Assembly (NCBI RefSeq): GCF_001463885.1
Contig: NZ_BBWQ01000021.1
Location: 1-64,000, forward strand
Direction of reading: 5' to 3'
DNA: 64,000 nucleotides
DNA from: Aureimonas altamirensis
GTDB taxonomy: Bacteria > Pseudomonadota > Alphaproteobacteria > Rhizobiales > Rhizobiaceae
The notes beneath the pieces are model-generated. The model was given only the letters and a program-made list of their open reading frames with translations, had not been told where the DNA came from and searched no databases. Shown here piece by piece: positions 30,332 to 40,428 of the stretch (position 1 is its first letter; the number at the start of each line of letters is the position of its first letter). The position numbers and the translations under genes were made by a program.

Positions 30332-30364
30332 GTTCGTCAATCAGGCAATCGGATGCGACCAGGT

Positions 30365-30760
30365 ATGGCCGAACAGACCACGGACAGAGCCGTTACCAGC
30401 CGCGTAGTGCTGGATCAGATCGCCGACAAATGGTCGATCCTCGTGCTGGGCGCTCTTTGCCCTGCACCGTTGCGCTTCAACGCGCTGAAGCGCTCGCTGG
30501 ATGGCATCACGCAGGCTGCGCTGACGCAAACCCTCCGCCGGCTCGAACGCAACGGGATCGTGGAACGCACCGTCGTCAGCGCCTCTCCCATTGCGGTCCA
30601 GTATGCCATCAGCCCGCTGGGACGGAGCCTGGAGCCGCTGTTTCAGGCGATCGACGACTGGACGAGAAAGAGCCTTTGGCAGGTCGAGGCGGCACGCCGG
30701 CGCTTCGATGGTCTTGCCCCGGTGGGTGCCGACGACGGTGATCGTTCACGCGGCGAATAA
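30365..30760 (+). CDS. HxlR-family transcriptional regulator
   Basis: 131 residues from the ATG at 30365 (another ATG at 30353). Typical winged helix: LDQIADKWSILVLGALCPAP, LRFNALKRSLDGITQAALTQTLRRLERNGIVER and QYAISPLGRSLEPLFQAI. One cysteine lies in the LGALCPAP block (about residue 34), close to the N-terminal redox cysteine position of thiol-sensing members. It very likely controls the divergent NmrA-like gene. Confidence 0.9.
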   Translation: MAEQTTDRAVTSRVVLDQIADKWSILVLGALCPAPLRFNALKRSLDGITQAALTQTLRRLERNGIVERTVVSASPIAVQYAISPLGRSLEPLFQAIDDWTRKSLWQVEAARRRFDGLAPVGADDGDRSRGE

Positions 30761-30764
30761 GGCG

Positions 30765-31547
30765 TCAGCGGCCGATCTCCGGTGCGACGACGACCGTCCG
30801 GGACCGGCCGTCCCCGGCCAGCCTGACGAAACCATCGCGCGAGCGTCTGCTGTCGTACTGATAGATGTAGGCATAGTCCGGCTCGAAGGCGGCGACGGCT
30901 TGCGCGGCGGACTCGGGGCTTAGCGCATAGGGAGGATAGAGCGGCAGGAACGCCAGATAGATATCCTGGAGCGCGAGCATCTCGGGAACCGCTTCCGTCG
31001 ATCCGGCGACGTAGAGCCGGCGACCGTCGAGGGTGACGACATATCCGTTGCCCCGCCCGGGTGGATGCCAGAGCATGGCCTGGCCGCCAAGACCATGCGA
31101 CGCAATCGCCTCGACCTCGATCGATCCAAGAACCGCTTTCTGCCCGTTCGCCAGCGAGACGGCACGTGCCTTCAGCGGTTCAGGCAGGCGGTCCATCACG
31201 AAGGGCGGAACGACGATGCGCGTGTCCGGCCCCATAAGCGCATCCAGCGTATCAGCATCGTAGTGTTCCCGATGCTCGTGGGAGATCAGCACGATATGGG
31301 GCGCCGGATGAGCGGCATATCGCGCGGCACCTCCTGTCGGATCGGTGTAGAGGACCCCGCTCGGAGCCTCGACGACGACACTCATCTGCTGCACTGGCGT
31401 GACCGCCATCCGGCCTGCATGGGTATCGAACTCCGTTGTGGCAGGGGCCGCTGTCTGCGCGCCGGTTTCGGCATTGCCTGCAAAAGCGGCTCCCAGCAGC
31501 ACCAGGCCGAAGGCGGCAAGGGCGGAACGTGACTTGAATTTGGCCAT
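30765..31547 (-). CDS. Exported metallo-beta-lactamase-fold hydrolase
   Basis: 260 residues from the ATG at 31547. It has a signal peptide (KFKSRSALAAFGLVLLGAAFA, about 3-24). Zinc motif HxHxxH-D is present as ISHEHREHYDAD (about residue 90), with later GHG-like SHGLGGQAML and DGRRLYVAGSTEAVPEML supplying the remaining ligands. The UlaG/L-ascorbate-lactonase-like class has this shape. It follows the AraC gene on the same strand (79 bp) and could be co-transcribed. Substrate unknown. Confidence 0.85.
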   Translation of the reverse strand: MAKFKSRSALAAFGLVLLGAAFAGNAETGAQTAAPATTEFDTHAGRMAVTPVQQMSVVVEAPSGVLYTDPTGGAARYAAHPAPHIVLISHEHREHYDADTLDALMGPDTRIVVPPFVMDRLPEPLKARAVSLANGQKAVLGSIEVEAIASHGLGGQAMLWHPPGRGNGYVVTLDGRRLYVAGSTEAVPEMLALQDIYLAFLPLYPPYALSPESAAQAVAAFEPDYAYIYQYDSRRSRDGFVRLAGDGRSRTVVVAPEIGR

Positions 31548-31626: not shown

Positions 31627-32562
31627 TTATGAGAAGAGGCGCGGGTTGTTGCAGGCGACAGGCGTAGCGGGCGCAAGCGCTCGATTGCTGCCATGACGCA
31701 GCATTGCGGCATCGTCGCTGGGTGTGAGATCGAACAGCCGGCGGTAGTCGCGGTTGAATTGCGACAGGCTTTCATAGCCGACATCGTAAGCGACCGACGA
31801 AATGGTGTCGGCGCTGGACAGACCGCGCCGCGCCTCCTGCAGGCGGACGCGCTTCTGGAACTGAACCGGAGACAAGGACGTCACAGCCTTGAAATGACGG
31901 TGAAAGCTCGGAACGCTCATATTCGCCTTTGCCGCCAGATCCGGGATGCTCATGGGCTCGGCATAATGCTCGCGGATCCAGGCGGTGGTCCGGCCGATCC
32001 GCGCAGCGTGGCCGTTGGCGAAGGCGAGCTGGCTGAGCAGGGGCCCGTGTTCGGTATGCAGCAGGCGCCAGACGATCTCGCGACGGATCAGCGGCGCCAT
32101 GATTGGAATGTCGCGTGGCCGCTCGAGAAGCGAAAGCAGCCGGATTATCGGGTCGAAGAGCTCCGGGTCGAGCCTGTACTTGCCGGCGATCAGAGTGTCG
32201 TCGGCTCTCGGACGCGGGCCCGACTGCTCGCGCAGGAGTTCGGCGACCACCGTCGGATCGATCTCCAGATGGATGGCAAGGTATGGCGCCGCCGCGCTTG
32301 CCTCGGTGACCTGCGACGTCACGGGAACATCGGCGGCACAGACCAGGGATTCACCCGCCGCATAGCGAAAGGCCGTTTCTCCGACCATCAACTCCTTCAC
32401 GCCCCTGGCGACCAGTCCGAAGGAAGGCTGGTAGATCGAATGGCCCACTTCGGACGGCATATCCGTTCGGCCGACCTTCAACCCCTCGATCGGCGTCAGA
32501 TAGTCGTAGCGCGCATGCCGCTCGATGGCGTCGCGGAGATCCGAAAACGATGGGAGAGCCAT
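31627..32562 (-). CDS. AraC-family regulator of the YqhC type
   Basis: 311 residues from the ATG at 32562. The N-terminal half is the AraC_N domain (SIYQPSFGLVARGVKELMVG, then YAAGESLVCAADVPV). The C-terminal DNA-binding domain has both helix-turn-helices: SIPDLAAKANMSVPSFHRHF, KAVTSLSPVQFQKR and VAYDVGYESLSQFNRDYRRL. This is the arrangement of E. coli YqhC, which activates aldehyde reductase genes in response to reactive aldehydes. A divergent aldo/keto reductase and repeated 20-bp sites upstream of four nearby transcription units fit that role. Confidence 0.9.
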   Translation of the reverse strand: MALPSFSDLRDAIERHARYDYLTPIEGLKVGRTDMPSEVGHSIYQPSFGLVARGVKELMVGETAFRYAAGESLVCAADVPVTSQVTEASAAAPYLAIHLEIDPTVVAELLREQSGPRPRADDTLIAGKYRLDPELFDPIIRLLSLLERPRDIPIMAPLIRREIVWRLLHTEHGPLLSQLAFANGHAARIGRTTAWIREHYAEPMSIPDLAAKANMSVPSFHRHFKAVTSLSPVQFQKRVRLQEARRGLSSADTISSVAYDVGYESLSQFNRDYRRLFDLTPSDDAAMLRHGSNRALAPATPVACNNPRLFS

Positions 32563-32676: not shown

Positions 32677-32696
32677 CTATGCACATCCTATCAGTA
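32677..32696 (-). promoter_or_regulatory. Putative AraC/YqhC-like box (araC copy)
   Basis: Read with the araC gene: TACTGATAGGATGTGCATAG, near edge 114 bp from its start codon. Shares the pattern YnCTGATnSGATSYGCRYAG with the copies at 32766, 37910 and 39340. Suggests autoregulation. Confidence 0.65.
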
Positions 32697-32765
32697 CCGC
32701 GCCTGATTGCGTCAAACCGCATTCCCGCAAGACCATGCATCGGCCTCTGATCGGCGGGTGCCGAT

Positions 32766-32785
32766 CCCTGATCGGATCCGCATAG
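32766..32785 (+). promoter_or_regulatory. Putative AraC/YqhC-like box (aldo/keto reductase copy)
   Basis: Read with the aldo/keto reductase gene: CCCTGATCGGATCCGCATAG, near edge 130 bp from its start codon. Confidence 0.65.
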
Positions 32786-32915
32786 CTTGCGCCTTCAAGA
32801 TTAAGCTAGCTCGGGGAAACCGGAGCCTGGCCAATGGGAGCGATCCAGTCGCGCCGAATGCCAAGCCTTGCCCGGACGGTCTCGGGATCCTGCCTCATCT
32901 TCGAAAGGAATAGCC

Positions 32916-33932
32916 ATGCGCATGCGAAAGCTCGGCAACAGCGGATTGTTCGTCTCGGAACTGAGTTTCGGCGCCATGACCTTCGGTGGCACCGATGGGC
33001 TCTGGGGCCAGGTCGGCCGACTGGGTCAGGAGGACGCCGATCTTCTGGTGAAGGCCGCATTCGATGCGGGCATCAACCTCTTCGACACCGCGAATGTCTA
33101 TGCCAATGGACGGAGCGAGGAGATCCTTGGCCGAAGCCTCAGGAATCTCGGTATCCCTCGCGACGACATAGTGGTTGCGACGAAGGTCGCATCGGCGATG
33201 GGCGAAGGGCCCAACCGGCGCGGCGCATCCCGTGGCCATATCCTGGCGGAGGCCCGCGCCAGCCTTGGACGTCTCGGCCTCGACCACATCGACCTGTATC
33301 AGATCCACGCCTTCGACCCTGCGACACCGATCGAGGAGACGTTGGAGGCGCTCGACGTGCTCGTGCGCGCCGGTGACGTCCGCTATGTCGGCCTGTCGAA
33401 CTGGGCGGCATGGCAGATCATGAAGGCGATCGGCATCGCGCGCGCCCGAAATCTTGCGCCGATCACCTCATTGCAGGCCTACTACACGCTGGTTGGCCGC
33501 GATCTGGAACGTGAGATCGCGCCGCTTCTCGTTTCGGAAGGCGTCGGCCTGATGGTCTGGAGCCCCCTGGCCGGCGGCTACCTCACCGGAAAATACGCCA
33601 AAGGCAATGCAGGCGACGGTGCACGTCAGACGGAACTCGACTTTCCGCCGATCGATCGGACCCGTGGCGAACCGCTGATCGAGGTGTTGAACACGGTTGC
33701 GGCCAGGCATGGCCGTTCCGCGGCGCAGGTCGCGATCGCGTGGCTGCTTCGGCAGCCGGTCGTCTCCACGGTGATCATCGGCGCCAAGCGTCTGGATCAA
33801 CTGCGCAACAACGTGCAGGCCGTCGATGTCCACCTTGACGACGACGACATGGCCCGTCTTGACGCGGTGAGCCGCCTGCCGATCGAGTATCCCGGATGGT
33901 TGCTGAACGCGTCCGATAAAGCCGGGCGGTAA
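32916..33932 (+). CDS. Aldo/keto reductase (AKR, Tas/YajO-like)
   Basis: 338 residues from the ATG at 32916 behind GAAAGGA. TIM-barrel AKR with the tetrad: Asp/Tyr in LFDTANVYANGRSEEILG (about residue 55), Lys in DIVVATKVAS (about 85) and His in HIDLYQIHAFD (about 130). The NADP-binding block STVIIGAKRLDQLRNN lies at about 285. It probably reduces aldehydes to alcohols. Divergent from the YqhC-type regulator. Confidence 0.93.
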   Translation: MRMRKLGNSGLFVSELSFGAMTFGGTDGLWGQVGRLGQEDADLLVKAAFDAGINLFDTANVYANGRSEEILGRSLRNLGIPRDDIVVATKVASAMGEGPNRRGASRGHILAEARASLGRLGLDHIDLYQIHAFDPATPIEETLEALDVLVRAGDVRYVGLSNWAAWQIMKAIGIARARNLAPITSLQAYYTLVGRDLEREIAPLLVSEGVGLMVWSPLAGGYLTGKYAKGNAGDGARQTELDFPPIDRTRGEPLIEVLNTVAARHGRSAAQVAIAWLLRQPVVSTVIIGAKRLDQLRNNVQAVDVHLDDDDMARLDAVSRLPIEYPGWLLNASDKAGR

Positions 33933-33960
33933 TGCCGGCGGTCGTCGACAAGATATGCAG

Positions 33961-36162
33961 CTACTGCAGATGCTCGATCCGGATCGGCAGATCGCGCAGG
34001 CGCCGGCCCGTGGCATGGAAGATCGCGTTCGATATGGCGGCGGCCATTCCCACCACGCCGACTTCGCCCACCCCCTTGACGCCTGCGCGGTTCACCAACT
34101 CGTCTTCTTCCGGAACCAGGATGGCCTGAACGTCGACGATGTCGGCGTTCACCGGCACGAGATAATCCGCAAGGTTGGCGTTGATGTAGCTCGCGTTTCG
34201 CGGGTCGATCTCGCTGTGCTCATGCAGGGCCGAGCCGATGCCCCAGATCATCCCGCCGACAAGCTGACCATGGGCCGTCCGGGGGTTGATGATGCGCCCG
34301 GCGGCAAAGGCGCCGACTGCCCGCGCAACGCGGATTTCGCTGGTCAGCGCATGGACGCGCACTTCGACAAACTGCGCGCCGAAGGCAAACTGGACGCGGT
34401 CGGCAAGATGCGCGCCGCCGCTCGGAAGTGCCCTGCCCCGATAGAGGCCGTGCATGCTTTCCGGCGGGTTTCCATGCGCCAGCGTCTCTGCGAACTCTTC
34501 GATCACGCCAATGCCGGACGCCTCCATGGCCGGCATGACGCCGGAGCGCGGGGCGTTCTCGACACCAAGTCGCCGGCGGATGGCGTCGCAGGCTGCCATG
34601 ATCGCGGGTGCGACGCTGGCGGTGGAAGCCGACCCGCCGGCCACCACCGCCGGGGGCAGGTCCGTATCGCCGAGCGAAACGGTCACATGAGCGACCGGAA
34701 CACCCAGTTCTTCCGCGGCAACCTGTGCCATCATCGTGTACATGCCCTGGCCGAGCTCGTGTCCCGCGCTCGACACGTGCACCCGGCCGTCCGCAGACAA
34801 CCGGACGCGGGCCGACGAGTTGCCGGCATGAGCCGGATAGAAAGCGCTGGCGCACCCCCATCCGACGCGCCAGTCGCCGTCGCGCATCGAACCCGGCTGC
34901 GATGTCCGGTCAGACCAGCCGAACCTTGCGGCCGCCTCGTCGAAGCATCGCATCAGCGAGCGGCTGGTATAGGGCAGGCCGGCGATCGGCTCGACGCGGG
35001 TATCGTTCAAGCGGCGCAGTTCCACCGGGTTCAGCCCAAGCTCGTGCGCCAGCTCGTCCAGCGCCGATTCCAGCGCGAAGGCGTAGGGCATCTCGCCGGG
35101 CGCGCGCATGAAGCCCGGCGTCGAGCGGTCTGCCGCCACGGCGTTGACGCGGCCGACGATGTTCGGGCAGGCATAAAGCCGGGCCGTCATCGATACCGCG
35201 CCCATCGCGACCTGATCGGCGCGCGACGTCAGTTCCCATCCTTCGTGTCGCATCGCCGTCAGGCGGCCGTCCCGCTCGGCCCCCAGCTGGATATGATGGC
35301 GGGTCTCGGCCCTGTAACCCGAGACGGTGAAACCCTGTGCGCGCGTTGCGACAAGCTTGACCGGGCGCCCGAGACGGCGGGCAGCAACGGCGACAAGGGC
35401 CGTGCGCTGCGTGAGAAACCCTTTGGCGCCGAAGGCTCCGCCGACATAGGTGCTGATGACGCGGATGCGTTCGGCGTCGATGCCGAGTTGCTCGGCGAGG
35501 CCGAACTTGACGTTGTTCACGTACTGGCTCGGCTCGTAGACCGTCAGCCTGTCACCCTCCCAGATGCACTGCGTGGCGAACAGCTCCATCGGATTCTGGT
35601 GCTGGGCCGGCGTCGAGTAACGCGCATCCACGGTAACGGCGGCCGAAGCATAGGCCGCTTCGAAATCGCCGACACCGAACGCCATCGGCTCCAGCGCCTG
35701 CACCACCGACCGCTCGGCATCGATGTCGGCTGCGGCCGGAACGGCATGCCCGGCATAGTCGATCACGATCCGTTGCGAGGCTTCGCGCGCCGCCTCATAG
35801 GTTTCGGCCAGAACGACCGCGACGGGCTGCCCCCAATAGGCGATTTCCGGTGAGCCGAGGGGACGAACCGAGTCGGAGGCATAGCCGCCGCCGAAGATCG
35901 CCGGCACCTGCCGGATCGAGTCCCCGACCGTCTCATGCGTCAGGATGTCGATGACGCCCGCAACCCCGCGCGCGGATGCAAGGTCGAAGGCCCTGATGGT
36001 CCCCCGTGCGACGCGGCTCGTATGGATATAGGCATGTACGGTCCGCGCCAACCGGACGTCGCTCGGATAGTCCGCACCACCCGTCACCTTGGCACGCGCT
36101 TCGTAACGCTGTACCGGCTGCCCCATATTGGCGCGCGGCCGGGGAAACGATGTCTCGGTCAT
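33961..36162 (-). CDS. paoC: Aldehyde oxidoreductase, molybdopterin subunit (PaoC-like)
   Basis: 733 residues of the xanthine oxidase family large subunit. Features: RYEARAKVTGGADYPSD at the N-terminus, cofactor-contact blocks YVGGAFGAKGF (about 245), MRAPGEMPYAFALESALDEL (about 355) and GHELGQGMYTM (about 470), and the C-terminal GVKGVGEVGVVG with the catalytic Glu (about 700). The subunit order and lengths match E. coli PaoABC, a periplasmic aldehyde oxidase that uses the MCD cofactor. Start overlaps the FAD subunit stop (4 bp). The dedicated maturation chaperone PaoD is not visible in the window. Confidence 0.9.
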   Translation of the reverse strand: MTETSFPRPRANMGQPVQRYEARAKVTGGADYPSDVRLARTVHAYIHTSRVARGTIRAFDLASARGVAGVIDILTHETVGDSIRQVPAIFGGGYASDSVRPLGSPEIAYWGQPVAVVLAETYEAAREASQRIVIDYAGHAVPAAADIDAERSVVQALEPMAFGVGDFEAAYASAAVTVDARYSTPAQHQNPMELFATQCIWEGDRLTVYEPSQYVNNVKFGLAEQLGIDAERIRVISTYVGGAFGAKGFLTQRTALVAVAARRLGRPVKLVATRAQGFTVSGYRAETRHHIQLGAERDGRLTAMRHEGWELTSRADQVAMGAVSMTARLYACPNIVGRVNAVAADRSTPGFMRAPGEMPYAFALESALDELAHELGLNPVELRRLNDTRVEPIAGLPYTSRSLMRCFDEAAARFGWSDRTSQPGSMRDGDWRVGWGCASAFYPAHAGNSSARVRLSADGRVHVSSAGHELGQGMYTMMAQVAAEELGVPVAHVTVSLGDTDLPPAVVAGGSASTASVAPAIMAACDAIRRRLGVENAPRSGVMPAMEASGIGVIEEFAETLAHGNPPESMHGLYRGRALPSGGAHLADRVQFAFGAQFVEVRVHALTSEIRVARAVGAFAAGRIINPRTAHGQLVGGMIWGIGSALHEHSEIDPRNASYINANLADYLVPVNADIVDVQAILVPEEDELVNRAGVKGVGEVGVVGMAAAISNAIFHATGRRLRDLPIRIEHLQ

Positions 36163-37178
36163 GGGCGGACCTCCATGGAAGCGGCTTCAAGCAATGCCCG
36201 TTGGAGCGCGGACCGGCCGAGCGTGATCTTGAAGGCGTTGTGGGACTGCGGAACGGCGTCGGCAAAGGCGGCGGTCGCAGCGGCCAGCGCGGTGCCCGGC
36301 GTAATCGTTCGGCCTTCCAGCGCTGCCTCTGCCTCGCGCGCACGCCAGGGGACGCTGGCAAGCCCACCGAGCGCGATGCGGGCCTCGCGGACGACCTCGC
36401 CGTCGAGATCCAGCGCAACGGCGACGGACGCGACCGCAAACTCGTAGGACTGCCGGTCGCGGATCTTCAGATACAGAGACCGTCGCGTCCAGGCGGCAGC
36501 CGGCACGATGAACTCTGCGATGATGTCGCCCGGCGCAAGGTTCGTTTCCCGATGCGGGGTGGTAGCGGGCAGTCGATGCAGCTCCGCAAACGGGATCACG
36601 CGGCTGCCCGAGGGACCGATGATTGTAACGGAGGCATCCAGCGCCAGCAGGGCCTGCGCAAAGTCGCCGGGATAGGTCGCGATGCAGTGCCGGCTCGTGC
36701 CGAGCAGCGCATGCATCCGGTTCGCCCCGCCCACTGCCGCGCACCCGCTGCCGGGCGCGCGCTTGTTGCAGGCGCTCCAGGACGGATCGCGGAAATAGGC
36801 GCAACGCGTCCGCTGCAGGACATTACCGCCGAGGCTGGCCATGTTGCGCAGTTGCGCGCTGGCGGCAAGCGCGAGGCTCTGCGCGATCACCGGATAATTC
36901 TCGGCCACGGCCGGGTCGGCGGCCGCGCGTGCCATCTTCGCGAATGCGCCGAGGCGCAGTGCGGAACCGTCCTGCCGGATGGCGCCGAACTCGTCGGCCA
37001 GGGCGCCAAGGTCGATGACCGTCTCGGGCCGCAGGACATCGAGCTTCATGAGGTCGATAAGCGTCGTGCCGCCGACAAGGAAGGCGGCGGAGGGGGAAGG
37101 TTCGGCAGCCACGGAGCGTCTCGCCTCCAGCAGCGCTTCGGCCATGGACGACGGACGGGAATAGGCAAAGGGCCGCAT
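36159..37178 (-). CDS. paoB: Aldehyde oxidoreductase, FAD/[4Fe-4S] subunit (PaoB-like)
   Basis: 339 residues from the ATG at 37178. FAD-binding PCMH block FLVGGTTLIDLMKLDVLRPE (about 35) and NMASLGGNVLQRTRC (about 112). It then has the extra cysteine insertion CAYFRDPSWSACNKRAPGSGC, which in PaoB binds an additional [4Fe-4S] cluster not found in ordinary xanthine dehydrogenases. This is the best marker that the operon is PaoABC-type. It passes electrons between the molybdenum subunit and the 2Fe-2S subunit or acceptor. Confidence 0.92.
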   Translation of the reverse strand: MRPFAYSRPSSMAEALLEARRSVAAEPSPSAAFLVGGTTLIDLMKLDVLRPETVIDLGALADEFGAIRQDGSALRLGAFAKMARAAADPAVAENYPVIAQSLALAASAQLRNMASLGGNVLQRTRCAYFRDPSWSACNKRAPGSGCAAVGGANRMHALLGTSRHCIATYPGDFAQALLALDASVTIIGPSGSRVIPFAELHRLPATTPHRETNLAPGDIIAEFIVPAAAWTRRSLYLKIRDRQSYEFAVASVAVALDLDGEVVREARIALGGLASVPWRAREAEAALEGRTITPGTALAAATAAFADAVPQSHNAFKITLGRSALQRALLEAASMEVRP

Positions 37179-37180
37179 CG

Positions 37181-37798
37181 TCAGCCCCCCATCGCATCGC
37201 GCGCCTGCGCGACGGCGGCGACGATGTTGGGATAGGCGGCGCAGCGGCAGATATTGCCACTCATATATTCGCGGATTTCGGCGGCCGAACCGGCATGGCC
37301 TTCCTTGACGCAACCGATCGCCGACAGAATCTGGCCGGGTGTGCAATAACCGCACTGGAAGGCGTCGTTGTCGACGAAGGCCTGCTGCATGGGATGCAGT
37401 TCGCCGTTTGGCCCGGCCAGTCCCTCGATCGTTGTAATCTCGCGGGCTCCCGCGGATACTGCGAGCGTCAGGCAGGCAAGCTCGCGTCGCCCGTCGATCA
37501 GCACCGTGCAGGCTCCGCATTGCCCATGGTCGCAGCCCTTCTTGGCTCCGGTCAGCGCGATATGCTCGCGCAGCGTATCGAGGAGGCTGGTGCGCACGTC
37601 GATGGAGACGCGATGGGTCTGTCCATTGACCTGCAACTCGACCGGGATGGGCGCGTGGACATCGGCGGGGACGGCGTCCGTTGCCTGCGCGGCCGCCGCG
37701 CGCGGCAGAAGGGGCGCCGCGCCCGTCAGGGCCGACCCGAGCAGGAACCCGCGCCGGCTCGTTGCGGACCCCACTGCATCACCGGATTTGTCACTCAT
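37181..37798 (-). CDS. paoA: Aldehyde oxidoreductase, 2Fe-2S subunit with Tat signal (PaoA-like)
   Basis: 205 residues from the ATG at 37798. A twin-arginine signal SRRGFLLGSALTGAAPLL (about 14-31) exports the folded complex. Plant-type ferredoxin cluster: CDHGQCGACTVLIDGRRELAC (about 85-105); second 2Fe-2S: CGYCTPGQ (about 138) and CRC (about 180). First gene of paoABC, 111 bp downstream of a 20-bp AraC-type box. Confidence 0.92.
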   Translation of the reverse strand: MSDKSGDAVGSATSRRGFLLGSALTGAAPLLPRAAAAQATDAVPADVHAPIPVELQVNGQTHRVSIDVRTSLLDTLREHIALTGAKKGCDHGQCGACTVLIDGRRELACLTLAVSAGAREITTIEGLAGPNGELHPMQQAFVDNDAFQCGYCTPGQILSAIGCVKEGHAGSAAEIREYMSGNICRCAAYPNIVAAVAQARDAMGG

Positions 37799-38157
37799 GA
37801 TGGATCTGGTCCCCGTTGCGTTGGACGCGCGACCAAGAGCTGGCTCGGGCGGCTCGATCACCGCGGCGTACGGCACCGTCTCAACGAAGCATGCGCCGCT
37901 CCAACGGCACTATGCAGATCCAATCAGAATCCGGCCCCATTCTCTCGCCGTAGCGCCAGAGCGGTGCCAGCCGACCGTCCGGCGTCCCGTCGAGCGGTCC
38001 AGACCAGGGTTCCTGCTTCGTCCAGGACGATCTGTTGATCACCGGGCAGCACCCCGCTTCGTCGGCTGCCACTGCGCACAGGCTCATCGAGATGCTGAAG
38101 GGCGCGGCAAAGGCGGCATCGCCGTCTTCGTGCATGACTTCTGGCGCGGCCCTTTTG
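37799..38157. other. pao upstream region
   Basis: 359 bp between gfo and paoA; apart from the 20-bp box at 37910 nothing supportable was seen. Confidence 0.4.
37910..37929 (-). promoter_or_regulatory. Putative AraC/YqhC-like box (pao copy)
   Basis: Read with paoA: TTCTGATTGGATCTGCATAG, near edge 111 bp from the start codon. Best match to the araC copy (16 of 20). Confidence 0.65.
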
Positions 38158-39261
38158 TCAGTCGGCGACGACCTGGCGTTGGCCGGTCTGCGCCGCACGC
38201 TCGACGGTGGCAACCAGACGGCTGTTGTGGAGCGCATGGGCAAATCCGGGGGTGTCGTATGTCCCCGCCGTCAGGTCGCGTCCGAGCGAGGCATAGACTT
38301 CGCCCACATTGATCGCCGCGCCGGCCCAGAAGGCCGCTGCCGTCGGGCCGACACCTGTCGCAAGCGGAGCATCCGGAGCATCGAAGGGTACGCTGGCCGT
38401 CAACGACAGATCTCCGACCTGAACGCCGGCAAGGTGATTGCCGGTGAGCCTGAGCCATCCCTCCGAACCACGGATCTCGAACGAGAATGCGGCGTCCTGC
38501 GGCGGGATGCCCGCCAGAACCTGGACGGATACGGGAGCGCCGCTTTGGGTCTTGGCAATCAGGTCGATATGGTCGGGCGTATCCCGCACCGAAATCCTGC
38601 CGGTATCGACGATCTCGATCTCGGGCCATAGCAGTTCGGTGCGCGCGTCGACTTCCATGACAGGACCAAGGATCGCCTCGATCACATCCAGCACGTGGCC
38701 GACGGTGATGGTCAGGAAGGTCGCTCCGAAGGCGGACTTGTTGAAGTAGTCGTAGACCTCCGGAGTTTGGGGCCCGTAACCGAAGGTCGTGGCGCCGACC
38801 CGCGCCGACATAAGGCGGCCGAGCTTGCCGGACGCCACCAGCTCCGCAGCGCGCCGAACCGAGGGATTATGCCGTCCCTGCAGGCCAATGGCCGTATGCG
38901 CACCCCTTGCGGCAGTGGCCATCTCTTCGGTTTCGGCAAGCGTCGCGCCAAGAGGCGCCTCGCTGTAGACGGCCTTCCCCTGCCTCAACGCGGCCATCAC
39001 CAGGTCCCGGTGAGCGGGTACCTTGACGGCCACCGTAACGACGTCGATGTCCCTGTCCTCGATCATTGCATAGGGGTCCGCAAACCAGCGCCCCGCGCCG
39101 AAGGCGTCGGCAGCGGCGCGCGCGCTTTCCTCGCGCCGCGTCGCGACTGCCGCCAGTACCAGGGACGGCTGCGCCTGCAACGCCGGGACATGCGAAGCGC
39201 CCGCCCAACTGGCCTGCGTATCGGCACCGATGATACCGACGCGAAATTTCTGTATCGACAT
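38158..39261 (-). CDS. Gfo/Idh/MocA-family NAD(P)-dependent oxidoreductase
   Basis: 367 residues from the ATG at 39261. N-terminal Rossmann domain: VGIIGADTQASWAGASHVPAL, then VAVKVPAHRDLVMAALRQGK, with KAVYSEAPLGATLAETEEM in the place of the usual EKP motif (Lys replaced by Ala-Pro: SEAP). The C-terminal alpha/beta domain has TITVGHVLDVIEAILG with the family His. The missing EKP lysine is not rare in the family but makes the reaction uncertain. A 20-bp AraC-type box lies 78 bp upstream. Confidence 0.88.
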   Translation of the reverse strand: MSIQKFRVGIIGADTQASWAGASHVPALQAQPSLVLAAVATRREESARAAADAFGAGRWFADPYAMIEDRDIDVVTVAVKVPAHRDLVMAALRQGKAVYSEAPLGATLAETEEMATAARGAHTAIGLQGRHNPSVRRAAELVASGKLGRLMSARVGATTFGYGPQTPEVYDYFNKSAFGATFLTITVGHVLDVIEAILGPVMEVDARTELLWPEIEIVDTGRISVRDTPDHIDLIAKTQSGAPVSVQVLAGIPPQDAAFSFEIRGSEGWLRLTGNHLAGVQVGDLSLTASVPFDAPDAPLATGVGPTAAAFWAGAAINVGEVYASLGRDLTAGTYDTPGFAHALHNSRLVATVERAAQTGQRQVVAD

Positions 39262-39339
39262 ATGACAATGCTCCGACCTGTTCAGGGACCGGGATACCGG
39301 GTCCACGATCGGAGCATACGGACGGCCTGGGCGACGCTG

Positions 39340-39359
39340 CTGCGCAGATCGTATCAGGA
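39340..39359 (-). promoter_or_regulatory. Putative AraC/YqhC-like box (gfo copy)
   Basis: Read with gfo: TCCTGATACGATCTGCGCAG, near edge 78 bp from the start codon. The most diverged of the four copies. Confidence 0.55.
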
Positions 39360-39448: not shown

Positions 39449-40351
39449 TCAGTCGAGCCCCTCGATCCGCCGCATATGTTGCGTCAGGAAGTCGGCGAAG
39501 GCGCGAACGGCCGGGCGCATGAACTTTGTGGAGGGGTAGGCGAGAAACAACTCGCTCGGCCGCACCTCCCATTCCGGAAGAATGCGAACCAGCCGCCCTG
39601 CCTCCAGGTCGTCGGCAACCAGCAGATGCTGGACCGGCCCGGCGGCATGGCCGTCGAGCAGCGTCCTGCCGACGACATGGGCGTCGTTGGTCTGCAGGAT
39701 GGGTCGCACGTCCACCTCCTGGGGCGCGCCGTCCGCAACGAGGGCCAGACGATTGCGCGACGTCATGGAGCGTGACGTCGTGACCACCGGGATGCGACCG
39801 AGGTCATCGAGCGTCTCGACCGGGCCGTGCTTCTGCAGGAAGGCCGGGCTTGCCACGAGGATGCGCCGCGCAAGCCCCAGCCGGCGGATGATCATGTCCT
39901 GGCCGCTCGGGCGCCCGTTCATCAACGCTATGTCGATATTCTCGAAGACAAGATCGACAGTCCGGTTTTCCAGCATGAGTTCGAAGGTGACGCCGGGATG
40001 GTCCTGCTGAAACATCATCAGCAATGGATGGATGTGTCGGCCCCCGATGCACGAGGGCGCATGAAGCCGCACCGTTCCTTCGATGGCTCCCGCCATGGCG
40101 TATAGGCCCTCGACCGCCGCATCGATCGAGGCGAGCGCCGACCGGCTCGCGTCGTAGAGCGCCTGCCCTTCGGGCGTCGCACGCACGGTGCGCGCGGACC
40201 GTTCCAGAAGGCGGGCGCGGACGTGTCTTTCGAGGTTTGCGATGTGCTTGGAGATCGCCGGTTGCGACAAGGATAGGTCGCGGGCAGCCGCGGTCAGCGA
40301 CCCGCGCTCGACGGTCCGTGTGAAGGCTCGCAAAGCCGCCGCCAGATCCAT
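39449..40351 (-). CDS. LysR-type transcriptional regulator
   Basis: 300 residues from the ATG at 40351 with GGGAG just upstream; a GTG at 40399 would add 16 residues. N-terminal HTH: AFTRTVERGSLTAAARDLSL, SQPAISKHIANLERHVRARLLERSAR. The substrate domain begins GTVRLHAPSCIGGRHI. It is divergent from the L,D-transpeptidase gene, with a palindrome between, but what it controls is uncertain. Confidence 0.93.
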   Translation of the reverse strand: MDLAAALRAFTRTVERGSLTAAARDLSLSQPAISKHIANLERHVRARLLERSARTVRATPEGQALYDASRSALASIDAAVEGLYAMAGAIEGTVRLHAPSCIGGRHIHPLLMMFQQDHPGVTFELMLENRTVDLVFENIDIALMNGRPSGQDMIIRRLGLARRILVASPAFLQKHGPVETLDDLGRIPVVTTSRSMTSRNRLALVADGAPQEVDVRPILQTNDAHVVGRTLLDGHAAGPVQHLLVADDLEAGRLVRILPEWEVRPSELFLAYPSTKFMRPAVRAFADFLTQHMRRIEGLD

Positions 40352-40428
40352 GCCATCTCCCGAACTGAACTCCGCCTCAGGGGGTCTGACATCTGACACC
40401 GCAGGGTCGGTCCATTATTCCTATCAGC

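What the first reader, a model, noticed from the sequence alone, without database searches (positions are those of the whole stretch)
32677..39359. A four-copy 20-bp motif defines a putative aldehyde-response regulon under a YqhC-type AraC protein
Seen: TACTGATAGGATGTGCATAG (araC), CCCTGATCGGATCCGCATAG (aldo/keto reductase), TTCTGATTGGATCTGCATAG (paoA) and TCCTGATACGATCTGCGCAG (gfo). All four point the same way relative to the gene they precede and lie 78-130 bp before its start codon. I did not find convincing copies at the other intergenic regions nearby. Known: the E. coli YqhC protein (same AraC_N architecture) controls aldehyde reductases, and PaoABC detoxifies aromatic aldehydes in the periplasm. 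Inference: araC, AKR, paoABC and gfo form one regulon, linking a periplasmic oxidase and cytoplasmic reductases.
Basis: partly seen in the sequence, partly recalled or inferred. Interest (0 to 1): 0.78.

Follow-up and report, generated by a model that had tools for sequence, protein, structure and literature searches.

The report
AraC-type detox regulon, tandem operators
Four nearly identical DNA sites in one bacterial gene cluster look like the promoter-side halves of a longer, conserved docking site for the neighbouring AraC-type switch protein, which probably turns on enzymes that dispose of aldehydes or similar compounds.

Summary
In the 4.19-Mb genome, 4 of 5 exact CTGATNNGATNNGCNNAG matches lie here.

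In relatives the site is the promoter-proximal half of a 39-40-bp tandem operator: TTGAGAGGATcGGGC, then TTGATAGGATcTGCATAG 21 bp on, then a weak -10-like box about 21 nt downstream. It precedes araC, gfo and/or paoA in 12 other genomes, also where gene order differs. In 94 more distant AraC_N homologues, upstream repeats peak at a pitch of 21 bp alone.

Best reading: a local regulon (araC, probably with a metallo-hydrolase gene; akr; paoABC; gfo) activated by AraC dimers on tandem half-sites. The aldehyde inducer is plausible, not shown. "YqhC-type" holds only at Pfam-family level (30% identity; no full operator found in E. coli). The window's gfo site lacks the distal half and is the weakest. 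New member of a known kind; the family-wide operator is the more interesting part.

The parts
31627..32562 (-). araC: AraC_N (PF06719) + AraC HTH regulator, 311 aa (P0001)
   Evidence: Pfam PF06719 1.1e-46, PF12833 8.7e-22; AlphaFold2 model mean pLDDT 89.4, closest solved folds CsvR/ToxT/Rns, AraC's own domain lower in the list
32677..32716 (-). operator of araC: distal half TTGACGCAATCAGGC 32701-32715, proximal half CTGATAGGATGTGCATAG 32677-32694, 21-bp pitch
   Evidence: held-out scores distal 12.1, proximal 29.0, full 41.1; coordinates
32746..32785 (+). operator of akr: distal half CTGATCGGCGGGTGC 32747-32761 (weak), proximal half CTGATCGGATCCGCATAG 32768-32785
   Evidence: held-out scores distal 0.5, proximal 27.9, full 29.9; coordinates
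32807..32812 (+). candidate -10 box of akr (TAGCTC), 21 nt after the proximal half-site
   Evidence: position matches the -10-like block seen in relatives
32916..33932 (+). akr: aldo/keto reductase, 338 aa
   Evidence: PF00248 6.3e-80; closest solved sequence 4xk2 1.5e-82, then 8hwn 'DepB'
33961..36162 (-). paoC-like molybdopterin subunit, 733 aa
   Evidence: MoCoBD_1/2, Ald_Xan_dh_C; PaoC model 568.7 bits, cut-off 1180; solved relatives 5y6q and E. coli PaoC 5g5h
36159..37178 (-). paoB-like FAD subunit
   Evidence: FAD_binding_5, CO_deh_flav_C; likely start codon located
37181..37798 (-). paoA-like [2Fe-2S] subunit, 205 aa, with a twin-arginine motif SRRGFLL
   Evidence: Fer2, Fer2_2; PaoA model 224.1 bits, cut-off 322; signal read by eye from the sequence printed
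37910..37949 (-). operator of paoABC: distal half GCGAGAGAATGGGGC 37934-37948, proximal half CTGATTGGATCTGCATAG 37910-37927
   Evidence: held-out scores distal 5.3, proximal 26.9, full 34.2; coordinates
38158..39261 (-). gfo: Gfo/Idh/MocA oxidoreductase with Gal80-like C-terminal domain, 367 aa
   Evidence: PF01408, PF22685; best solved relatives GAL80 and scyllo-inositol dehydrogenase
39340..39357 (-). proximal half-site of gfo CTGATACGATCTGCGCAG; no distal half in register
   Evidence: held-out proximal 19.1, distal -13.4, full 8.8
39313..39318 (-). candidate -10 box of gfo (TATGCT), 21 nt after the half-site
   Evidence: about the same spacing as TATGTT before gfo in several relatives
30765..31547 (-). 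mbl: metallo-hydrolase-like protein with an apparent signal peptide, probably co-transcribed with araC
   Evidence: Lactamase_B_3 1.8e-11; likely start codon; also near araC or paoC in L021, L024, L027, L030

Best explanation
The four sites are promoter-proximal half-sites of operators for the AraC-type protein encoded beside them. In the full form a dimer binds two direct-repeat half-sites one 21-bp pitch (about two helical turns) apart: TTGAGAGGATcGGGC, then TTGATAGGATcTGCATAG. The proximal half-site ends where a -35 element would sit, about 21 nt before a weak -10 box, so the bound protein can recruit RNA polymerase to promoters that lack a good -35 (class II activation, as at araBAD). It thereby co-activates its own operon (araC, probably with mbl), akr, paoABC and gfo. 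The inducer is most likely an aldehyde or another reactive carbonyl compound: PaoABC oxidises it in the periplasm, and the AKR (and perhaps Gfo) convert it in the cytoplasm. Shown here by comparison: the operators, their pitch, their conservation before orthologous genes, and co-occurrence with this AraC. Inferred: binding by AraC, dimer binding, activation rather than repression, and the inducer (about 0.55 for aldehydes).
For: Held-out matrix: window sites rank 1-4. Of 41 gene starts examined (4 window, 37 in relatives), I accepted a site at 30; the 11 without are 5 akr genes inside gfo-akr operons, 2 araC genes inside paoABC-araC operons, 1 paoA paralogue and 3 starts in 53%-identity systems, which fits operon logic. 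The distal half was not used to pick the sites, yet at the fixed 21-bp register 24 of 25 sites in relatives score above 5 in leave-one-locus-out tests, against a 99.9th percentile of 2.7 in background. Gene order differs (gfo-akr divergent from araC in L022, L023, L024, L027, L028, G159, G125; akr divergent in the window; paoABC-araC operon in L021/L025/L026) but the operator stays with the first gene of each operon. Same-genus genome G159 has operators at araC, gfo and paoA. Family sample: perfect matches to TGAGN7GGN8TGATNGNATNNGCATA only in G159 and G125, the only 2 of 198 other genomes with the close orthologue. In 94 distant homologues, 36 have a 21-bp-pitch repeat (11 of 15 or better) in the last 150 bp upstream; pitches 15-20 and 22-30 give 0-3. 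A -10-like hexamer is best at 21 nt: 7 of 29 sites match TATAAT at 4 or more of 6, plus 3 at 20 nt; 0 or 1 at other offsets 10-28. Divergent genes of six distant homologues tested by Pfam: zinc alcohol dehydrogenase, three SDR, AKR, and one ABM protein.
Against: No binding, expression or transcription-start data. Window distal halves are weak at akr (0.5) and absent at gfo (-13.4). The window's gfo full score (8.8) is below the best full scores in stretches around stray pattern hits of other genomes (up to 15.5), and its proximal score (19.1) is not far above the best other place checked in the own genome (16.6). The -10 boxes are weak; paoA's (TTCGTT) is hardly one; a sigma-70 consensus scan found 2 promoter-like places in the cluster (1.4 expected), none at these sites. 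The E. coli yqhC-yqhD spacer does not show the full operator. PaoABC assignment is below NCBIfam equivalog cut-offs. Sites in relatives were first located with a pattern taken from the window, so their proximal scores are not independent of it; one accepted site (gfo of L027) matches that pattern at only 9 of 14, as some rejected starts do, and was kept for its distal half and full score of 31.2.
Confidence: 0.8

Rival explanations
1. The shared motif is a promoter element read by an alternative sigma factor; the genes share a sigma factor, not an activator.
For: All four sites lie upstream at similar distance and in one orientation; no strong sigma-70 promoter is present at them.
Against: In relatives it is a tandem repeat with a 21-bp pitch, typical of AraC-type dimers (recalled); a separate -10-like block lies about 21 nt further on; in 198 family members perfect operator matches occur only with this AraC; distant AraC_N homologues have repeats with the same pitch and mostly a shared AGGATCG core.
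Confidence: 0.07
2. Another regulator nearby, such as the LysR protein at 39449-40399 or the HxlR protein at 30353-30760, owns the sites.
For: Both genes flank the cluster.
Against: The window's LysR has relatives of 28-32% identity in L024, L025, L026 and L027 and 60% in L030, not tied to the operators; HxlR was not searched in relatives. araC is the gene common to the loci with operators, apart from L030 where it is a stub and a 53% paralogue sits nearby. LysR sites are typically inverted repeats (recalled).
Confidence: 0.04
3. The regulon is real but its inducer is not an aldehyde: for example a keto-sugar, a polyol derivative, a quinone or a xenobiotic ketone.
For: The AKR's second-nearest solved sequence is named DepB, which I recall as a reductase of a 3-keto mycotoxin intermediate; Gfo is nearest to GAL80 and scyllo-inositol dehydrogenase; one distant homologue faces an ABM protein.
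Against: PaoC's nearest solved sequences are aldehyde oxidases/oxidoreductases; E. coli YqhC's target promoter is activated by glyoxal and furfural (PMC5297802, passages read).
Confidence: 0.35
4. The protein represses rather than activates these promoters.
For: Not excluded by sequence; autoregulated AraC proteins can do both (recalled).
Against: The proximal half-site abuts the -35 position of promoters with no recognisable -35, the geometry of class II activation (recalled); E. coli YqhC is an activator (PMC5297802, passages).
Confidence: 0.12

Closest known systems
E. coli YqhC - yqhD-dkgA circuit
   Same: AraC-type regulator divergent from a carbonyl reductase gene; activator, target activated by glyoxal and furfural (PMC5297802, passages); aligns over both domains
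   Different: 30.4% protein identity; YqhC has a single target in gSELEX (PMC8249747, passages) against four sites here; no full copy of this operator in the yqhC-yqhD spacer, though an unpaired distal-like half scores 10.3 there
AraC on araI1-araI2 of araBAD
   Same: two direct-repeat half-sites 21 bp apart with the downstream one at the -35 (recalled textbook geometry)
   Different: half-site sequence; different N-terminal Pfam family (recalled); no looping site looked for
PaoABC periplasmic aldehyde oxidoreductase of E. coli
   Same: three subunits in the order A-B-C, twin-arginine motif on PaoA, PaoC among the closest solved relatives
   Different: scores below NCBIfam PaoA and PaoC equivalog cut-offs; no paoD-like gene in the operon (the 3 XdhC_C matches over the cut-off are on other contigs; one below it at window 60064)
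AKR + AraC pairs of Methylobacterium (L031) and Sphingomonas parapaucimobilis (L160)
   Same: 53% identical AraC divergent from an AKR, one tandem operator with 21-bp pitch; in L160 TTTGATAGGATCGGGC/TTTGATCGGATCGACG
   Different: one operator seen in the araC-akr spacer; no paoABC or gfo orthologue found in the 20.9 kb of L031, none listed in the (incomplete) annotation of L160

Membership tests
AraC/XylS regulator with AraC_N domain (PF06719) | AraC_N domain followed by the AraC-type helix-turn-helix domain above gathering scores | tested here: met
   158.6 bits against 24.2; HTH_18 77.7 against 33.6
AraC-type tandem operator | two direct-repeat half-sites about two helical turns apart upstream of a promoter | tested here: met
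   21-bp register: 24 of 25 relatives' sites and 2 of 4 window sites (araC, paoA) above the 99.9th percentile for the distal half; akr weak, gfo not met
AraC-type tandem operator | binding by the cognate protein | not testable with these tools
   needs EMSA or DAP-seq
YqhC orthologue | high identity and yqhD-dkgA partner genes | tested here: not met
   30.4% identity; partner genes are akr, paoABC, gfo
YqhC orthologue | induction by aldehydes | not testable with these tools
   no expression data
PaoABC (NCBIfam equivalog) | score above the curated cut-off for PaoC and PaoA | tested here: not met
   PaoC 568.7 of 1180; PaoA 224.1 of 322: best-scoring model for each, but not equivalog
PaoABC (NCBIfam equivalog) | exported via a twin-arginine signal on PaoA | tested here: inconclusive
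   SRRGFLLGSALTGAAPLLPRAAAAQA near the N-terminus, read by eye from the sequence; no signal-peptide program was run and export was not tested

The most novel reading that the evidence does not exclude
AraC_N (PF06719) regulators share an old operator code: a direct repeat of an (A)GGATcG-type half-site at exactly 21 bp, recognisable from Alphaproteobacteria to Streptomyces, normally one operator aimed at a divergent gene that is often a carbonyl reductase. The clade in this window turned that one-target switch into a four-operator regulon by copying the operator in front of a periplasmic oxidase, a second dehydrogenase and itself, and gained a clade-specific cysteine (C75) that could serve as an electrophile sensor.
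Probability: 0.5. Interest if true: 0.62.

Novelty: new member of a known kind. Interest (0 to 1): 0.45.

Why it matters
AraC_N-type proteins are common in the genomes sampled (79 of 199 family genomes have a match to this one at E <= 1e-40) and my searches listed little on their operators. A readable operator (21-bp-pitch repeat with a GGAT core) would let their targets be predicted from genome sequence and gives parts for aldehyde biosensors. It also shows a case where a probable periplasmic molybdenum oxidase and cytoplasmic oxidoreductases are put under one switch, with the operator following the genes through rearrangements.

Tried and rejected
Sigma-factor element, neighbouring LysR/HxlR, and chance were considered and rejected or ranked low (see rivals). 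Transfer of the operator to E. coli yqhC-yqhD: TTGAGAGCCAGGGC catches the eye, but the GGGC is out of register; the matrix gives at best -7.4 for the proximal half and -19.8 for the full operator on either strand. Against this, a distal-like half (ATTGGCAGAAATGAGC) scores 10.3, above the 99.99th percentile (8.0) of a G+C-rich background that flatters A+T-rich DNA; unpaired, so dropped. A further target in the own genome: 27 other places matched the two loose patterns; in the 3-kb stretches around them, both strands, the best full score is 2.5 and the best proximal score 16.6 (which repeats because that script printed the full score of one strand only), against 8.8-41.1 and 19.1-29.0 for the four sites; none accepted. 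Most lie in long open frames, weak evidence in a G+C-rich genome; a full genome scan with the matrix was not possible. Class sample (385 genomes): pattern hits in 6 other genomes, all with one mismatch, 5 of them one recurring coding-like string, none next to relatives of 9 cluster proteins in the stretches held. AKR as the usual divergent partner in distant homologues: only 8 of 95 by tblastn with three AKR queries, so dropped; partners vary. The distant-homologue set held 95 entries, one of which (L085) was a wrongly cut upstream stretch; one search repeats the main counts on 94 and they hold (36 as before; 42 instead of 43). In those that looked for this operator or a Pao-AraC link (23, 36, 37, 42, 45, 58, 77) no listed paper appeared, by title and start of abstract, to describe it; 23, 37 and 42 returned nothing at all; one search returned mostly ARACNE papers and was useless. 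Papers were seen as passages only, none read whole. Lee 2010 on YqhC is not held, so a published YqhC site cannot be excluded.
Full report
What was claimed. Four copies of a 20-bp motif precede araC, an aldo/keto reductase gene, paoA and gfo, and define an aldehyde regulon under a YqhC-type AraC protein.

Observation. All four copies are at the stated places, each in the orientation of the gene it precedes, with 114, 130, 111 and 78 bp between site and start codon. The pattern CCTGATNGGATCTGCATAG with up to 3 mismatches gives 4 matches in the window against 0.04 expected, but that pattern was written after seeing the sites. The fair test is a matrix built from 25 sites in relatives with the window held out: the four window sites take ranks 1-4 among about 128,000 positions for the proximal half (29.0, 27.9, 26.9, 19.1; next 7.8) and for the full 40 bp (41.1, 34.2, 29.9, 8.8; next 1.5). 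In the whole genome (4,187,548 bases) 4 of 5 exact matches to CTGATNNGATNNGCNNAG lie here. Around the 27 other loosely matching places the best full score is 2.5 and the best proximal score 16.6.

Relatives. The AraC protein has orthologues with 77-84% identity in 10 loci of a genome collection (Rhizobium sp. NFR07 twice, two Aurantimonas species, Aureimonas, Oceanibaculum, Ancylobacter, Kaistia, Skermanella, a Rhizobiales bacterium; the call kept the best 80 of 113) and in 2 of 198 other genomes of its family sample (G159, same genus, and G125). None of 384 other genomes in a class sample has one at E <= 1e-100. The module thus looks rare and scattered, which suggests horizontal transfer (inference; no tree was made).

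The operator is twice as long as reported. Upstream sequences of these orthologues show a second half-site 21 bp before the first: TTGAGAGGATcGGGC then TTGATAGGATcTGCATAG. Information content forms three blocks: about -22 to -7, 1 to 17, and a -10-like block at 38 to 44 counted from the start of the proximal site. The distal half was not used to choose the sites (except gfo of L027, below), so it is a fair check: in leave-one-locus-out scoring 24 of 25 distal halves score above 5 in register (one, araC of L023, -4.1), against a 99.9th percentile of 2.7 over 2.4 million background positions. In the window the distal half is good at araC (12.1), fair at paoA (5.3), weak at akr (0.5; there it repeats the proximal TGATCGG) and missing at gfo (-13.4). 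Taken alone, distal scores of this size also occur elsewhere in the window (top 14.9); they count only in register. A -10-like hexamer is best 21 nt after the proximal half: 7 of 29 sites match TATAAT at 4 or more of 6, and 3 more at 20 nt; other offsets from 10 to 28 give 0 or 1. A 17-nt spacer would put the -35 position over the last two bases of the half-site. Promoters of this shape, with no sigma-70 consensus match at them, are what a class II AraC activator works on (recalled geometry of araBAD).

The operator follows the genes. In seven relatives (L022, L023, L024, L027, L028, G159, G125) gfo-akr is divergent from araC, with one operator per direction; paoABC, where held, has its own; in L021, L025 and L026 the order is paoABC-araC and only paoA has an operator. 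In the window akr itself faces araC and gfo stands apart, each with a site. Of 41 gene starts examined, I accepted a site at 30 (one of them, in L026, a near-copy of L025 and left out of the matrix; one, gfo of L027, matches the pattern at only 9 of 14 and was kept on the strength of its distal half). The 11 without: 5 akr genes inside gfo-akr operons, 2 araC genes inside paoABC-araC operons, 1 paoA paralogue, 3 starts in systems with a 53% identical AraC. The 30 sites come from the window and 12 other genomes. G159, of the window's genus, has operators at araC and gfo (53.9 and 43.6; both were in the training set) and at paoA, about 9 kb away (19.8, not in the training set). In the family sample, perfect matches to a 37-bp operator pattern occur only in G159 and G125; the window's own two hits have one mismatch each, and three other genomes have one single-mismatch hit each, with no relative of 9 cluster proteins in the stretches held. 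Best full scores in the stretches around stray hits of both samples reach 15.5, above the window's gfo (8.8): the gfo site rests on its proximal half, its -10 spacing and the conserved operators before gfo elsewhere.

A family-wide feature. In 94 distant AraC_N homologues (38.7-53.6% identical, 92 of them below 46%, many from Streptomyces), I asked only whether the last 150 bp upstream hold a direct repeat of any sequence. At pitch 21, 36 of 94 have a repeat of 11 or more matches in 15; at pitches 15-20 and 22-30, 0 to 3 do. Over 320 bp upstream it is 42 of 94, against 3.75 in shuffles of the earlier set of 95. Of 58 with 10 or more matches in the last 200 bp, 45 match GAGGATCGTGCAAG at 11 or more of 14 in their better orientation, and 55 of the 58 then point away from araC, to the divergent side (the consensus was chosen after seeing them). 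Divergent genes tested with Pfam (6 chosen of 14 extracted; the others were look-alikes of these or doubtful frames) were a zinc alcohol dehydrogenase, three short-chain dehydrogenases, an aldo/keto reductase and an ABM protein. At 53% identity, Methylobacterium L031 and Sphingomonas parapaucimobilis L160 have clear tandem repeats between AKR and araC. Homologues share ancestry, so these counts are not independent events; the pitch comparison is the control for that.

Proteins. AraC_N plus HTH; AlphaFold2 model with mean pLDDT 89.4; nearest solved folds CsvR, ToxT and Rns, with AraC's own domain further down. Cysteine 75 is present in all 11 clade members aligned and absent at that place from the two 53% relatives, YqhC, four Streptomyces proteins and the paralogue: a possible sensor, untested. 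PaoC's nearest solved relatives are aldehyde oxidases/oxidoreductases, but PaoA and PaoC miss NCBIfam's equivalog cut-offs. The akr product is nearest to 4xk2 and DepB, gfo to GAL80 and inositol dehydrogenases. Aldehydes are therefore the likeliest, not the only, signal.

Comparison with known systems. E. coli YqhC is an activator of yqhD-dkgA, with glyoxal and furfural as activating conditions (PMC5297802, passages), and has a single target by gSELEX (PMC8249747, passages). Identity to it is 30.4% and its spacer lacks the full operator, though one unpaired distal-like half scores 10.3 there. So the protein may work like YqhC in broad terms and belongs to the same wider family, but is not shown to be its orthologue. 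My searches listed no paper that, by title and abstract start, treats this operator or an AraC regulator of PaoABC; the library is open-access only and Lee 2010 is not held.

Verdict. New member of a known kind, with a useful family-wide operator.

Noticed in passing
window 30765-31547 (-): A metallo-hydrolase-like gene with an apparent signal peptide just after araC; relatives lie near araC or paoC in L021, L024, L027 and L030, so it may be part of the regulon.
   Followed up: partly
L030 19357-19512 and 10001-10849: In Ancylobacter gelatini the clade araC matches only over its first 52 residues, yet operators remain before this stub, gfo and paoA; a 53% identical paralogue sits beside mbl-paoCBA and may have taken over.
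   Followed up: partly
L029 747-1648: The araC of Aurantimonas sp. 22II-16-19i aligns in two different reading frames that meet at 1028, so it is broken there or the sequence has an error.
   Followed up: no
own genome G000:C18:357308-358099: A second AraC_N protein (39.5% identical) lies beside another AKR gene (32% identical to akr); no full operator of this kind scores above 0 in the 5 kb held.
   Followed up: partly
P0001 residue 75: A cysteine conserved in all 11 clade members aligned and missing at that place in the 8 other AraC_N proteins aligned, at the end of a strand of the N-terminal domain.
   Followed up: no
L045 divergent gene: A Streptomyces AraC_N homologue faces an ABM-domain gene; a paper on glyoxal signalling in P. 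aeruginosa deals with the ABM-fold protein ArqI (PMC12274486, search listing and passages).
   Followed up: no
L028 11171-11953: A second AraC_N gene (40% identical) lies tail to tail with the clade araC in Kaistia dalseonensis.
   Followed up: no
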